A stretch of DNA of 64,000 nt from Cellulosilyticum lentocellum DSM 5427 (GTDB lineage: Bacteria; Bacillota; Clostridia; Lachnospirales; Cellulosilyticaceae), in contig NC_015275.1 in assembly GCF_000178835.2 (NCBI RefSeq), positions 2,191,001-2,255,000 of the forward strand. Reading direction: 5' to 3'. How positions within the stretch are numbered: the first letter of the stretch is position 1; the number at the start of each line of letters is the position of its first letter. The notes beneath the pieces were generated by a model, which saw nothing but the letters and a program-made list of their open reading frames with translations, was not told the DNA's origin and ran no database searches. Positions 13,925 through 61,617 of the stretch are shown here, in pieces. Position numbers and translations under genes: made by a program.

Positions 13925-13940
13925 AAATACAAATAAATAA

Positions 13941-14001
13941 GGGGAATGAAGTACTCCCTAAGTTTGATACTTAAACCGCTTATAAAGCTGATGACTTCTG
14001 T
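13941..14001 (+). ncRNA. Fluoride riboswitch (crcB motif)
   Basis: The element follows the crcB fold seen in the Thermotoga petrophila aptamer. P1 pairs 13942-13945 with 13955-13958. The P1 loop AUGAAGUA contains GAAGU (13948-13952), which forms the pseudoknot with ACUUC (13994-13998). P3 is GCUU 13978-13981 with AAGC 13985-13988, followed by the conserved CUGAUG. An optional hairpin, 13959-13963 with 13969-13973, lies in the linker ahead of the conserved AAACCGC. Fluoride binding should stabilise the aptamer and stop the following terminator from forming, switching the antiporter gene on. Confidence 0.9.
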
Positions 14002-14035
14002 GAAACATATAATCACAGGAGAATCAGCTTTTTTT
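13984..14035 (+). terminator. Riboswitch-controlled terminator (expression platform)
   Basis: Outer stem 13984-13992 with 14023-14031, inner stem 13998-14003 with 14013-14018, then seven T residues at 14029-14035. The left arm reuses the 3' half of the aptamer (P3 and pseudoknot strand), so aptamer and terminator exclude each other. Confidence 0.88.
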
Positions 14036-57081: not shown

Positions 57082-57238
57082 AGCATTCACCTCTTTTAAG
57101 TAATTTTAAGATTAAAATTACTATGTCCAATTTTTCTAGAAATATGCATAAATAAAAGATCACTACCTTATATTGACAGTATAGAAAATGTGAATTTCCA
57201 TATGCTATTACTAACATTTTAAAATTAGGAGGTTCATG

Positions 57239-57874
57239 ATGAATAAACAAAAATGGCAAGGACTTACCATTGCCTTAATGATAAGTGTGTTAGCAAGTAC
57301 AACTTTCGGTTCAGTAAATAGAAATGTACCAGCTCCTAGTCCATCACCAATAGCATCACCAAGTGCAAAACCAGTGCCAACAGTAGCACCAACTACAAAA
57401 CCAGCACCAACGATGGCACCAACTACAAAACCAGCACCAACGATGGCACCAACTACAAAACCAGCACCAACGATGGCACCAACTACAAAACCAGCACCAA
57501 CGATGACACCGACTACAAAACCAGCACCAACGATGGTACCCTCTACAAAACCAGGACCATGTACAAAACCAGCACAAGATCAAAAGGCTAAACCTTTTAT
57601 GTTAGATAATTTTAAAGTAATTGCAAATACTTTAGCTGGGCTTGGTGTAGATGAAGCTAAACTTACTTCATATATTAAGGAAGGTAAGAAGTTAGAGGAT
57701 GTTTTAAAGGTTGAGAAGATTTCTACACGCAAATTCAAAAAATGTGTGATTAAAGAATATAATAGAGTAGTAGATCAAGCTGTTAAAAACAAACAACTTA
57801 CTTGTGAACAAGCAAAACAACTTAAAGCGGCTATTAAACAAACTATTAAAAATTGGCTTCCAAAAAGTAAATAA
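57239..57874 (+). CDS. Exported protein with Pro/Thr-rich decapeptide repeats
   Basis: A 211-residue exported protein. Signal peptide about residues 1-24 ([17 protein letters not shown]). Residues 30-112 are low-complexity, built on the decapeptide [10 protein letters not shown]. The C-terminal 95 residues are a basic helical domain ([19 protein letters not shown] ... [22 protein letters not shown]) without recognised family. No LPXTG or other wall anchor. The Pro/Thr stretch resembles linkers of extracellular clostridial proteins and could be glycosylated. AGGAGG precedes the second of two ATGs. Confidence 0.75.
57361..57550 (+). repeat. 30-bp in-frame tandem repeat
   Basis: Three identical copies (57391-57420, 57421-57450, 57451-57480), then one with a single change (57481-57510), one with a few changes (57511-57540), and degenerate ends on both sides. 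Each unit codes for ten residues, so copy-number change keeps the frame. Confidence 0.95.
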
Positions 57875-58011: not shown

Positions 58012-58037
58012 AGGCGAAGGGAAATAGAAAATAAAAA

Positions 58038-58190
58038 GCGCCAGAACTTGACAGTTACGTGAAAAATGTTAAGTTGACGAGGACTAGAGTGATCGAAAAT
58101 TCGGCGGATGCTCTAGAGGGTTCACACCCTAAATAAGCCAACAAAACTAAAAAGTGATTTTTAGGACAAAGGGTTTATCGTGAATTTCCC
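58038..58190 (+). ncRNA. glmS ribozyme-riboswitch
   Basis: Self-cleaving leader that responds to glucosamine-6-phosphate. Recognised core pieces: AAGCGCCAGAACTTGA at the 5' end, GTTGACGAGGA, ATCGAAAATTCGGCGGATG, and the P3/P4 region further on. The cleavage site should lie between A58037 and G58038. It ends about 37 nt before the glmS start codon. High GlcN6P cleaves the mRNA and lowers GlmS. Confidence 0.95.
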
Positions 58191-58226: not shown

Positions 58227-60056
58227 ATGTGCGGAATTGTAGGTTATATCGGTTCAAAACAAGCATCAGACGTTATTATTGACGGATTAGAAAAACTAGA
58301 ATACAGAGGTTATGATTCAGCAGGAGTTGCAGTTGTAAATGGTGATGACAAAATTAGTTGGGCTAAAAAACAAGGAAGATTAAGTGGGTTAGAAGCCATT
58401 CTTGCTAAGAAGCCAGTAGAGGGAACTGTAGGAATAGGCCATACAAGATGGGCTACACACGGGGCACCATCAGACTTAAATTCTCATCCTCATTTAAATG
58501 CAGCAGAGACTATTGCTGTTGTTCATAATGGAATCATTGAAAATTATATGGAACTTCGTGAGATGCTTATAGCAGAAGGATATGTTTTCAAATCAGAAAC
58601 AGATACAGAAGTAGCAGTTCACTTAATTGATAAATTCTATGAAGGAGATTTATTAACAGCTGTTTATAGAGCAGTAGAGCAATTTAGAGGTGCTTATGCT
58701 CTTGGGGTTGTATCAGCCAATCACCCAGGTGAATTAGTAGCTGTAAGAAAAGAAAGTCCATTAATTGTTGGCGTGGGTGAAGGTGAATATTTTATTGCCT
58801 CTGATGTACCAGCTATCTTAAAATATACTAGAAATGTTTATTATTTAGAAAATGATGAAGTAGTTTATGTTAAGGATGGCAAGTTAACTATTTTAGATGG
58901 GGAGCAAAAGGTTATTGATAAAGAACTTAAAGTTGTAGAATGGGATATTGAAGCAGCTTCTAAAGGTGGTTTTGACCATTTTATGATGAAAGAAATTTAT
59001 GACCAACCACAAGCTATTCATGATACACTGATGAGAAGACTTGATGAAGATGGTATGATTCATTTAGATGATATCAAACTTACAAAAGAAGATTTAGATG
59101 GTATTACTAAAATGTATATTGTGGCATGTGGTACAGCTTATCATGCAGGCCTTGTAGGTAAATATGCAATTGAAAAATTAGCTAAAGTACCTGTTGAAGT
59201 AGACATTGCTTCAGAATTCAGATATAGTGATCCATTTATTGATGAACACACGATGCTTATTGTTGTTTCTCAATCAGGCGAAACAGCAGATACATTAGCA
59301 GCTATGAAACTTGCTAAAGCAAAGGGTGCAAGAGTACTTGCAATTACTAACGTGGTTGGCTCATCAGTAGCTAGAGAGGCTCATGATGTATTTTATACAT
59401 GGGCAGGTCCAGAAATTGCTGTAGCATCTACTAAAGCGTATACAGCACAGATGATTGCTTTTTATATGATTGCTTTAGATTTTGCTTATAAAAAAGGAAC
59501 GATTACTTTAGAGGCTTATCATGAAACGATTAAAAAGATTGAAGCTTTAGCACCGCTTGTTCAAGAGATTTTAGCAGACAAAGATGAAATTGAAAAAATA
59601 GCTATGGACATGAAAGATGCACAAAATGCCTTTTACCTTGGTAGAGGAGTTGATTATACAACAGCTAGAGAAGCAGCTCTTAAATTAAAAGAGATTTCTT
59701 ATATTTACACAGAAGCTTTTGCAGCTGGAGAATTGAAACATGGTCCTATTGCGTTAATTGATCAAGGTACACCAGTACTTTGTATTGTGACACAAGAAGC
59801 GTTGGAAGAAAAAATGATTTCTAATATCAAAGAAGTTAAAGCAAGAGGGGCTTTTGTTATTGCCATTACTAGAAAAGGAAATACAGAAGTAGCTAAAGTG
59901 GCTGATGATGTCATTTATATCCCAGGAGCTGATGATTTATTAATGCCAGTATTATCTGTTATTCCTACTCAGCTTATTTCTTATTATGTATCTATTGCTA
60001 GAGGCAATGATGTTGATAAACCACGTAATCTTGCAAAATCGGTTACAGTAGAATAG
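58227..60056 (+). CDS. glmS: Glutamine-fructose-6-phosphate aminotransferase (isomerizing)
   Basis: GlmS of 609 residues makes glucosamine-6-phosphate for peptidoglycan and other amino sugars. The N-terminal glutaminase begins MCGIVGYIG, where C2 is the nucleophile, with GHTRWATHG; two SIS domains follow (YIVACGTAYHAG, VVSQSGETADT), and the C-terminus is NLAKSVTVE. AAGGAGG precedes the ATG. Controlled by the upstream glmS ribozyme. No clear terminator follows, so read-through into the next region is possible. Confidence 0.98.
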   Translation: MCGIVGYIGSKQASDVIIDGLEKLEYRGYDSAGVAVVNGDDKISWAKKQGRLSGLEAILAKKPVEGTVGIGHTRWATHGAPSDLNSHPHLNAAETIAVVHNGIIENYMELREMLIAEGYVFKSETDTEVAVHLIDKFYEGDLLTAVYRAVEQFRGAYALGVVSANHPGELVAVRKESPLIVGVGEGEYFIASDVPAILKYTRNVYYLENDEVVYVKDGKLTILDGEQKVIDKELKVVEWDIEAASKGGFDHFMMKEIYDQPQAIHDTLMRRLDEDGMIHLDDIKLTKEDLDGITKMYIVACGTAYHAGLVGKYAIEKLAKVPVEVDIASEFRYSDPFIDEHTMLIVVSQSGETADTLAAMKLAKAKGARVLAITNVVGSSVAREAHDVFYTWAGPEIAVASTKAYTAQMIAFYMIALDFAYKKGTITLEAYHETIKKIEALAPLVQEILADKDEIEKIAMDMKDAQNAFYLGRGVDYTTAREAALKLKEISYIYTEAFAAGELKHGPIALIDQGTPVLCIVTQEALEEKMISNIKEVKARGAFVIAITRKGNTEVAKVADDVIYIPGADDLLMPVLSVIPTQLISYYVSIARGNDVDKPRNLAKSVTVE

Positions 60057-60142
60057 TGAATGAAACTCAGTAGCTTTATTTTTTAAAACTTTATTAGGGA
60101 ATCATCTTTTTGATCACATATACAATAGTGTAAAGATAAAAC

Positions 60143-60577
60143 AAATAACTTTCCAAAGCAGAATCACCACAGCTTTAATCTGAGGAACTGACCGGGTCAG
60201 CCAAGTCTCAATCTATTGTTATAGGTACCTCTGGACTTAAGGAAAATGTTCACTGATGCGCTGTAAAGGGAGACGCTTAAATGATAAGTTGTTTAATTAG
60301 GCTTTACACACGAAGTAGTACCAAAAACAAAGTTTAAAACCAGAGTCTTAAAGCCTTAGCTTCCTCATCACAAGGGTGCACCGGCTAAGACTTTTAAGGA
60401 GCTCCTCACTCTTCGTTTAAACTTTTATAACTTGTGCTATTTATCCTTAAAGTGCATACTGCCCTGAGGAGCTACAGTCATGCCCTTTGAGATGGTAGCG
60501 TAAGTTTTTAAAAGTGAATAATGAAGAGCTGGTAAGCAAAAATAGCCAAGTGATATATGTCGCTTGGCTATTTTTGC
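60143..60577 (+). ncRNA. Candidate large structured non-coding RNA
   Basis: A 430-nt stretch without a credible reading frame but rich in complementary segments: 60188-60192/60196-60200; 60229-60234/60340-60345; 60262-60268/60302-60308; 60329-60338/60416-60425 (10 bp); 60347-60353/60391-60398 stacked on 60355-60360/60384-60389; and 60400-60408/60465-60473 (9 bp). It ends in a perfect 15-bp terminator stem (60536-60550 with 60563-60577). GC content looks higher than the flanks. I cannot name the RNA; by size OLE-like RNAs are the first thing to test. Start point approximate. Confidence 0.55.
60536..60577 (+). terminator. Terminator of the candidate RNA
   Basis: A perfect 15-bp stem with 12-nt loop and T5 at 60571-60575. 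Confidence 0.92.
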
Positions 60578-60579
60578 GT

Positions 60580-60660
60580 GTGTGCTCAGCATGGCGCAAT
60601 CTAATGGGTGAAAGTCCTGAGTATGGATTGATAGGGCAGTACGGGGATATTTTGTGCCTA
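60580..60660 (+). mobile_element. Truncated 5' end of a group II intron (class C-like)
   Basis: The segment opens with GTGTGCTCAGCATGG, followed by CAATCTAATGGGTGAAAGTCC, the conserved 5' end of bacterial group II introns (compare Oceanobacillus IIC: GUGUGCCCGGCAUGG, then GGGUGAGAGUCC). It starts two bases after the preceding terminator hairpin, the usual target of class C introns. The rest of domain I, the reverse transcriptase gene and domains V/VI are missing. The 3' limit is uncertain. Confidence 0.75.
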
Positions 60661-60789
60661 CAATAAGGCAGCGTATTACAATTTATAAATTGATTTTATT
60701 TTTGAGAATAGAGATTAATTATTAAAAATTAAGACGTTGACAATGTACTATAGTTGGCTGGATAATGAAAATAAAAAGGAGGATTTTTT

Positions 60790-61617
60790 ATGAGTAAACA
60801 AGATAAAATAGCTGTATTAATTGATGCAGAAAATGTGTCAAATAAGTATATAAAATTAATTATGGATGAAGTTAATAACTATGGTATTGCTACATATAAG
60901 AGGGTATATGGAGATTATTCAAATCCAAGCGTCATGGCGTGGATGAAAAACTTAGAAGAATATGCACTTACACCAGCATTGCAATGTAATTATACTTCGG
61001 GGAAAAGTGCATCAGATTCGGCTTTAATTATTGATGCGATGGATATTCTTTACTCTGGAAAAGTAAGTGCTTTTTGCTTAGTCTCATCTGATAGTGATTT
61101 TACAAAACTTGCTATGAGATTGAAAGAGGCAGGAATGAATGTAATCGGAATGGGAGAAGGGAAAACACCTAAATCACTTGTTTCCGCTTGTGAAACATTT
61201 AAATATCTAGATATACTGTATAGAGAAGAAGCACTGGCAGAAGCAGAAGCAGTTGTTGAAGATAAAATAGCAGAAAAAGATAAAACAACAAAAAGGGTAA
61301 CAACGCAAGAAAAGAAACATGAGGTTTCACAAGATATTGAAGAAGCTGCTGAAGAAATAGTTAGTATTCCAACGCTTAGTGATATTGAGAAAGAAGTTAT
61401 TTCTATTATCTCGACAAATGCAGAAGAAAATGGATGGATCAATATAGCTGAACTTGGAGTAAACCTTAGCAAAAGAGTGCCAGGGTTTGATCCAAGAAAT
61501 TATAAGTGTCGAAAGTTATCAGCTCTACTAGAAAAAATTAATTTGATAGAATTAAATACTGTTGAAAATCCTCACAACAGTTTATTGAAAATAGTTTATG
61601 CAAAAATTAAAGATTAA
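60790..61617 (+). CDS. NYN-domain ribonuclease-like protein with C-terminal LOTUS/OST-HTH
   Basis: A 275-residue protein. Residues 5-145 are a NYN (LabA/DUF88) PIN-like nuclease domain: VLIDAENVS with D12, SASDSALIIDAMD, and SSDSDFTKLAMRLKEAG provide the acidic metal site. Residues 150-195 are a charged linker, and residues 200-270 an OST-HTH/LOTUS-type winged helix (IISTNAEENGWINIAELG). This pairing is known from bacterial and eukaryotic RNA-regulating proteins. It lies next to the candidate structured RNA, but with 200 bp between. AAGGAGG precedes the ATG. Confidence 0.9.
   Translation: MSKQDKIAVLIDAENVSNKYIKLIMDEVNNYGIATYKRVYGDYSNPSVMAWMKNLEEYALTPALQCNYTSGKSASDSALIIDAMDILYSGKVSAFCLVSSDSDFTKLAMRLKEAGMNVIGMGEGKTPKSLVSACETFKYLDILYREEALAEAEAVVEDKIAEKDKTTKRVTTQEKKHEVSQDIEEAAEEIVSIPTLSDIEKEVISIISTNAEENGWINIAELGVNLSKRVPGFDPRNYKCRKLSALLEKINLIELNTVENPHNSLLKIVYAKIKD

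What the first reader, a model, noticed from the sequence alone, without database searches (positions are those of the whole stretch)
60143..60577. Gene-free, complementarity-rich 430-nt block with its own terminator: candidate large structured RNA
Seen: no usable ORF, at least six complementary segment pairs of 5-10 bp over long range (for example 60329-60338 with 60416-60425, and 60400-60408 with 60465-60473), some nested and some crossing, plus a perfect 15-bp terminator. A 5-bp crossing pair, 60372-60376 with 60483-60487, suggests a pseudoknot. Known: several bacterial RNAs of this size class (OLE, ROOL, GOLLD, raiA) look like this. Inference: a large ncRNA, possibly a diverged known class or a new one. 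A NYN-LOTUS RNA-binding protein gene is next door.
Basis: partly seen in the sequence, partly recalled or inferred. Interest (0 to 1): 0.72.

Follow-up and report, generated by a model that had tools for sequence, protein, structure and literature searches.

The report
High-copy structured RNA gene family
The block is one of about 40 scattered copies of an intricately folded RNA gene, with what look like its own start and stop signals, that I found in no RNA catalogue and almost only in this one bacterium; its function is unknown.

Summary
The block at 60143-60577 is most of an RNA gene: promoter-like motif 60094-60122 (TTAGGGA-N15-ACATATA), a 5' domain (60128-60309), a 3' domain with a pseudoknot (60329-60534) and a terminator (60536-60577). 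The same genome holds 38 strong copies of the 3' domain, one divergent full copy and some partial ones; 29 of the 38 have the full 5' domain, one part of it, eight none by model. Base pairs covary strongly in both domains; support for the pseudoknot rests mainly on two divergent members. No Rfam family matches. Relatives: one copy in a sister species, decayed or weak ones in another genus; in an even sample of 391 genomes of the class only the own genome matched. Neighbouring genes do not recur, so a link to glmS or the NYN-LOTUS gene is unlikely. In related species the same motif precedes DnaD-like replication genes, DUF1659 operons and an endolysin-like amidase. At least three recent copies lie between inverted arms of a palindromic repeat. 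Best reading: a new family of large structured RNAs, probably acting in trans, amplified in one species. Expression and function are not shown; selfish spread is the main rival.

The parts
60094..60122 (+). promoter-like bipartite motif TTAGGGA-N15-ACATATA
   Evidence: 34 exact sites in the genome, 32 of them at copies of this RNA (L125 and the weak L128 included); 46 sites within one mismatch against 7 for the reversed control. 34 of the 38 strong copies have it within one mismatch; L039, L065, L073 and L119 do not
60126..60577 (+). inferred RNA transcript, about 450 nt (start inferred from the -10-like element, end from the terminator)
   Evidence: inference from motif, P1 and terminator; no transcript data
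60128..60309 (+). 5' domain, closed by P1 (60128-60137 with 60300-60309); absent from short-form copies
   Evidence: RNA model R1: 29 full-length places and 1 short one in own genome; covariation
60329..60534 (+). 3' domain, closed by P3 (60340-60343 with 60529-60532)
   Evidence: RNA models R2 and R3: 38 strong copies in own genome; covariation
60344..60392 (+). hairpin P4
   Evidence: 10 + 6 pairs, 89.7% and 91.5% of cells paired, 5 pairs with changes on both sides
60400..60473 (+). pseudoknot helix, 60400-60408 with 60465-60473, crossing P5
   Evidence: 89.6% of cells paired, 5 of 9 pairs with a change on both sides, one row each: three in L125, one in L139 (G005), one in L073 at the end pair, which is paired in only 13 rows
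60409..60527 (+). long helix P5, 60409-60434 with 60502-60527
   Evidence: helices 5 and 6, 20 pairs, 13 with changes on both sides
60482..60493 (+). small hairpin P6 inside P5
   Evidence: 5 pairs, 4 with changes on both sides, 80% of cells paired
60329..60425 (+). alternative helix, 60329-60338 with 60416-60425, exclusive with the middle of P5
   Evidence: seven of ten pairs standard in 29-36 of 37 rows, three in only 6-14; duplex energy among the best 5% of shuffles in 23 of 37 rows, not in L119, L125, L139 and 11 others
60536..60577 (+). intrinsic terminator, perfect 15-bp stem
   Evidence: sequence; a hairpin in register in 33 of 36 copies, the stem alike within close groups and different between them

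Best explanation
The block is one member of a new family of large, independently transcribed, structured noncoding RNAs. A promoter of one fixed type starts an RNA of about 450 nt. It folds into an optional 5' domain closed by P1 and a core 3' domain closed by P3, with hairpin P4, long helix P5 and a pseudoknot between the strand just before P5 and the loop of P5; a terminator ends it. The gene was amplified to about 40 dispersed copies in this species by DNA-level duplication, in part as cargo of a palindromic MITE-like repeat. The RNA most likely acts in trans as a structural RNA (bound by a protein or assembling with itself), turned on together with phage-like replication and lysis genes that share its promoter motif. 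Shown: the family, its structure by covariation, the shared motif, the copy number. Inferred: transcription, trans action, partner, co-regulation.
For: Copies: 38 strong matches to the 3' domain in the genome, plus L125; 29 full 5' domains. Structure: 3' domain, 37 rows, 30 of 54 pairs with changes on both sides (shuffles 17.3, 0 of 500 reach it), 87.6% of cells paired against at most 53.5% when slid; 5' domain, 27 rows, 12 of 51 pairs (shuffles 5.2, 0 of 500). In the 5' domain the four highest-ranked column pairs of all are compensatory base pairs. Per copy: the window's own copy keeps 46 of 53 pairs with 22 changed paired bases, 38.2 expected, 0 of 400 simulations as high. Motif and terminator in register. 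No protein family recurs beside more than three copies, which argues for action in trans. The motif also stands before DUF1659, DnaD-like and amidase genes.
Against: No transcript data. High copy number in one species, truncated and interrupted copies, as expected of a selfish repeat. Paralogues share ancestry, and 13 close copies dominate the consensus, so the covariation tests overstate independence; the structures were derived from the same copies. In the 3' domain the ranking is less clean: ranks 2, 3 and 5 of the column pairs are not standard pairs and ranks 4 and 7 are not in the structure. In the 5' domain 'further pair types' is not above shuffles (149 of 500). Several copies alone keep no more pairs than chance gives easily (L139 53, L072 75, L073 90, L070 39, L046 31 of 400). 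The pseudoknot's changes on both sides come from single rows. The motif also precedes what looks like a tRNA-Gln gene (by eye), so it may be a general promoter type.
Confidence: 0.7

Rival explanations
1. A selfish, non-autonomous mobile element whose RNA or DNA structure serves its own spread (intron-, omegaRNA- or MITE-like); the host has no use for it.
For: About 40 copies in one species and few in relatives; truncated copies; inverted arms of a roughly 300-bp palindromic repeat on both sides of L050, L056, L057 and, weakly, L053, 4 of 14 copies tested; a copy beside what looks by eye like a truncated chemotaxis gene; not seen behind glmS in five relatives.
Against: 24 of 37 rows show no arm motif nearby; old single copies mostly keep pairs, motif and terminators; no recurring companion protein; no Rfam intron or HEARO match.
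Confidence: 0.22
2. A cis-acting element: 3' UTR or attenuator of glmS, or leader of the NYN-LOTUS gene.
For: It lies between these genes on the same strand.
Against: Own promoter-like motif and terminator; other copies have other neighbours; of 36 copies 17 lie antisense to both neighbours and 25 have a convergent downstream gene; not seen behind glmS in five relatives.
Confidence: 0.03
3. A diverged member of a known large RNA class (OLE, raiA, ROOL, GOLLD, HEARO).
For: Size class and ornate fold.
Against: No match to any of 4227 Rfam models at gathering scores over the window except glmS and fluoride, and nothing credible in permissive searches of the block and of seven other loci.
Confidence: 0.03
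4. A decayed protein gene.
For: None found.
Against: No usable frame in the window's copy and no ORF that spans the copies in the loci read; covariation on RNA helices. No protein-database search of the translated block was made.
Confidence: 0.01

Closest known systems
OLE, ROOL, GOLLD and raiA RNAs (large ornate bacterial RNAs)
   Same: Large, no ORF, complex fold (general features recalled)
   Different: No Rfam match; about 40 paralogues in one genome; optional 5' domain; found here in one bacterial family only
HEARO and other IS200/IS605-associated RNAs
   Same: Multi-copy, structured, dispersed; copies can lack an ORF (recalled)
   Different: No Rfam match; no protein family recurs near copies; terminator of its own
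MITEs and palindromic intergenic repeats
   Same: Dispersed, intergenic, species-restricted; some copies sit between inverted arms
   Different: Most copies show no such arms; RNA-level covariation, motif and terminator kept

Membership tests
Known Rfam classes (OLE, raiA, ROOL, GOLLD, HEARO, introns) | Match to the family covariance model at its gathering score | tested here: not met
   Window: only glmS ribozyme and fluoride riboswitch; block and seven other loci with permissive thresholds: nothing credible over the RNA
Large structured trans-acting ncRNA (generic kind) | Conserved secondary structure shown by covariation | tested here: met
   with the caveats on shared ancestry
Large structured trans-acting ncRNA (generic kind) | Independent transcription unit | tested here: inconclusive
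   Motif and terminators in sequence; no transcript data
Large structured trans-acting ncRNA (generic kind) | Expressed RNA of the predicted size | not testable with these tools
   No RNA-seq available
MITE | Terminal inverted repeats and target duplication at the element's own ends | tested here: inconclusive
   Inverted flanks in 4 of 14 copies tested, no arm motif near 24 of 37 rows; target duplications not examined
HEARO / IS605-type RNA | Neighbouring IscB/TnpB-like gene or its remains | tested here: inconclusive
   Neighbour ORFs were only clustered with each other; no family beyond pairs and triples; they were not searched in Pfam
Large RNAs tied to one neighbour gene | Conserved gene neighbourhood | tested here: not met

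The most novel reading that the evidence does not exclude
An RNA-only genomic resident: a pseudoknotted RNA gene without any protein, run by the promoter type of a domesticated phage-like programme (DnaD-like replication proteins, endolysin-like amidase, DUF1659/DUF2922), that multiplied to about 40 copies and is either the RNA arm or an RNA parasite of that programme.
Probability: 0.2. Interest if true: 0.85.

Novelty: new variant of a known kind. Interest (0 to 1): 0.72.

Why it matters
Large structured bacterial RNA families outside the classical ones are few and several have no assigned function (general knowledge). This one brings strong covariation, a testable pseudoknot, a removable domain and dozens of natural variants in one genome, so structure and function could be dissected quickly. 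If the cell uses it, it is an unusual expansion of an RNA gene family; if it is selfish, it is an RNA gene that spread without a protein. The shared promoter motif gives a concrete handle: which regulator, which condition.

Tried and rejected
Rfam gathering and permissive searches: no known family over the RNA, chance-level hits only. Neighbour-gene link (NYN-LOTUS, glmS): rejected. One exact pattern scanned over genome contigs and over viral contigs: 0 hits each, with the tool's note that the window's own or very near genomes may be left out there; phages and plasmids, one copy as query: no match. R2 over 392 genomes of the order (3 with a match, own included) and R3 over 391 of the class (1, the own), both with stricter filters that lose weak matches and few candidates scored per genome. 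The G023 hit of R3 (E 0.005) shows no such RNA by eye. G001's candidate RNA (L140) was found by the motif, folds well (z -8.5 against 60 simple shuffles) and has a possible pseudoknot helix by eye, but R2, R1 and R3 do not detect it; left as a candidate. A SigO-RsoA-like sigma factor as reader of the motif: looked for in papers, no consensus seen; not claimed. Alignment A4 was not used: it holds a minus-strand row of L073 that I take for a palindrome artefact. Rows dropped: L039, L061 and L066 from A1, A2 and A5, because inserts lie in or the script chose another hairpin at their terminators; L068-L073 from the 5' alignment A3, because they lack all or part of that domain.

Literature. A claim that this is not in print rests only on these searches: 'large noncoding RNA' + Cellulosilyticum, 0 papers; lentocellum + 'noncoding RNA', 0; names of large RNA classes, 8, listing and abstracts' starts seen; structured-ncRNA surveys, 24, of which 15 listed; species name, 76, of which 25 listed; DUF1659/DUF2922, 1; SigO/RsoA, 123, of which 10 listed. 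PMC10028694: passages seen. No paper was read in whole or by section.

Full report
Where it is. The block lies between glmS (58227-60056) and an NYN + OST-HTH/LOTUS gene (60790-61617) on the same strand. The window is 2191001-2255000 of a one-contig genome of 4,714,237 bases.

The observation. No usable ORF; the three complementary segment pairs given with coordinates and the 15-bp terminator are there. Folding energy is far below shuffles on the + strand (z -5.3) and less so on the - strand (z -4.1). G-U exceed A-C cells in the named pairs (219 to 105 and 105 to 13), which favours the + strand. Rfam finds nothing credible in the block.

It is a high-copy family. A search of the own genome with 60100-60700 gave 43 matches at E <= 1, 36 of them at E <= 5.4e-15, the query's own place included. 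I fetched these places. A covariance model of the 3' domain (R2) gave 42 matches in the own genome at E <= 0.1, 38 of them at E <= 8.4e-13. The better model R3 gave 45: the same 38 at E <= 1.1e-22, L125 (63 bits), five partial ones and L128 (E 0.019); L119, L120, L125 and the G005 copy were in R3's own alignment. The 5' domain model R1 gave 30, one of them a short stretch. So of 38 copies 29 are long, one (L069) keeps part of the 5' domain and eight lack it by this model; in those I read (L070-L073, L119, L120) the 3' domain follows the promoter-like stretch closely. Copies are spread around the chromosome among unrelated genes. Of 36 copies 17 are antisense to both neighbours, 25 have a convergent downstream gene and 8 run along with both neighbours. 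A quick tree of the 3' domain puts 13 copies on short branches together (L044, L047, L049-L057, L062, L071); most others sit on long branches.

Structure. Consensus folding of 27 long copies and 33 3' domains gives the helices listed in parts. In the 5' domain the four highest-ranked of all column pairs are canonical and compensatory (CG 21/UA 6; AU 21/GC 6; UA 14/CG 12/UG 1; GC 18/AU 7). In the 3' domain rank 1 is a P5 pair and rank 6 a P4 pair, but ranks 2, 3 and 5 are not standard pairs and ranks 4 and 7 lie outside the structure. Counting named pairs: 5' domain, 12 of 51 pairs changed on both sides, shuffles 5.2; 96.6% of 1369 cells paired, shuffles 94.4; 'further pair types' is not above shuffles (149 of 500). 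3' domain with the pseudoknot, 37 rows: 30 of 54 pairs, shuffles 17.3; 105 cells, shuffles 41.2; 87.6% of 1955 cells paired, best slid version 53.5%. RNAalifold's own default run on the poorly cut alignment A1 found little covariation (22 pairs, 2 with a two-sided change); cutting the domains apart and leaving out the short forms made the difference.

Pseudoknot. The helix 60400-60408/60465-60473 is nearly invariant among close copies. It has two-sided changes at three pairs in L125, one in the G005 copy and one in L073 at the end pair; L120, L073 and L065 each break one or more pairs. L128, not in the alignment, has a changed end pair by eye. In partial copies that lack the 5' strand, the 3' strand has drifted in two by eye (L075 and G007) but not in L122. 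So the pseudoknot is likely but rests on few rows.

Per copy. I compared kept pairs with random placement of the same number of changes: 1699 of 1919 kept, 1516.8 expected (3' domain); 1323 of 1369, 1239.8 expected (5' domain). The window's copy: 46 of 53, 38.2 expected, 0 of 400; 47 of 51, 41.5 expected, 0 of 400. Several divergent copies alone are not significant (L139, L072, L073, L070, L046), and copies with few changes say little. The test ignores shared ancestry. Single-sequence folds of L125, L128 and L120 show, by eye, a P4-like hairpin, a P5-like stem and a terminator; those of G005 and G001 were not compared helix by helix.

Alternative helix. It excludes the middle of P5. It may be a folding intermediate or a switch; that is inference.

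Ends. The motif TTAGGGA, 15 bases, ACATATA occurs 34 times exactly in the genome, 32 at copies of this RNA (L125 and L128 included); the other two precede a tRNA-Gln gene (by eye) and a DUF1659-DUF2922 gene pair. Twelve more sites have one mismatch: four at copies of the RNA, two at remnants that keep little but motif and terminator (L129, L132), one before a RepA_N/DnaB_2 gene, one before a decayed DUF2922-like gene (by eye), four without clear meaning. The reversed control gives 7. Four strong copies (L039, L065, L073, L119) lack it within one mismatch. A script that looked for the two halves with mismatches reported mixed gaps of 12 and 14 because its second half could match two bases early; the exact-spacing search is the better evidence. 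In the other 23 genomes of the family a slightly shorter motif occurs 15 times in 9 genomes, against 4 for the reversed control in the same genomes. The 15 sites precede: DUF1659 genes 6 (all six Pfam-tested), replication-initiation or DnaD-like genes 6 (three tested against PHROGs, three by eye), an Amidase_2/endolysin-like gene 1, the G005 RNA 1, a candidate RNA in G001 1. So the motif is old in the family and belongs to a small set of genes with a phage-like flavour. Whether a dedicated sigma factor reads it is unknown. At the 3' end 33 of 36 copies have a terminator hairpin in register; its stem is alike within close groups and different between them. In the other three the script chose another hairpin; L039 and L066 carry inserts there by eye.

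Spread. In relatives R3 gives one copy in G005 (74 bits; part of its alignment), two in G007 (E 1.7e-6 and 0.026, partial) and a doubtful one in G023, of 24 genomes; R2 gives 3 of 392 genomes of the order and R3 1 of 391 of the class, own included each time, both with stricter filters. Behind glmS in G001, G005, G006, G007 and G014 I saw no such RNA, with only 328 and 696 bases held for G005 and G006. A second repeat, about 300 bp and palindromic, gives 66 matches in the genome. It flanks L050 (79% over 270 bp), L056 (75% over 187), L057 (78% over 311) and weakly L053 (75% over 48) as inverted arms, 4 of 14 copies tested; in L057 end motifs lie 323 before and 799 after the equivalent of 60100. 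In L055 and L047 such a repeat starts just after the terminator. Recent copies therefore may have moved inside this repeat; how the older ones spread is not known.

How it works. What is conserved is the RNA fold, copies have no common neighbour, and nearly all have their own start-like and stop signals. I therefore prefer a trans-acting structural RNA over a cis element. Selfish spread is not excluded and may be true as well: an RNA under selection can ride on mobile repeats.

Known or not. It matches no Rfam family. It works like other large structured RNAs only in the generic sense. My paper searches showed no report of it in their listings, but most subscription papers are not in that library and long lists were cut.

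Noticed in passing
60578-60700: Directly after the terminator the DNA resembles the 5' end of a group II intron of the type that inserts behind terminators (recalled; Rfam shows no match). L042 has a similar-looking stretch behind its terminator (Rfam nothing credible).
   Followed up: partly
own genome, e.g. L062:2620-3010: A palindromic repeat family of about 300 bp, 66 matches in the genome, often as inverted pairs with a spacer, some around copies of the RNA.
   Followed up: partly
G000:C1:316187, 319064 and L138-L155: A promoter-like motif shared across the family in front of DnaD-like replication genes, DUF1659-DUF2922 operons and an endolysin-like amidase: a possible alternative-sigma or phage-like regulon.
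   Followed up: partly
L126:1096-1124: The same motif lies just before what looks like a tRNA-Gln gene (by eye).
   Followed up: no
L075, L121, L122, L182, L183, L184: Partial copies that match mainly the P5 region of the 3' domain (profile positions about 78-200) in the own genome and G007; L075 and the G007 C15 copy also match part of the 5' domain.
   Followed up: partly
L039 and L066, terminators: Insertions that look like ends of IS elements sit inside the terminator loops (by eye).
   Followed up: no
L062, upstream flank: The copy borders what looks like a truncated chemotaxis receptor gene on the other strand (by eye; an 88-aa fragment similar to a 698-aa ORF of L063).
   Followed up: no
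window 13933-14007 and 58026-58188: Fluoride riboswitch and glmS ribozyme.
   Followed up: no
window 57236-57874: Predicted protein with a run of near-identical [10 protein letters not shown]-like repeats.
   Followed up: no
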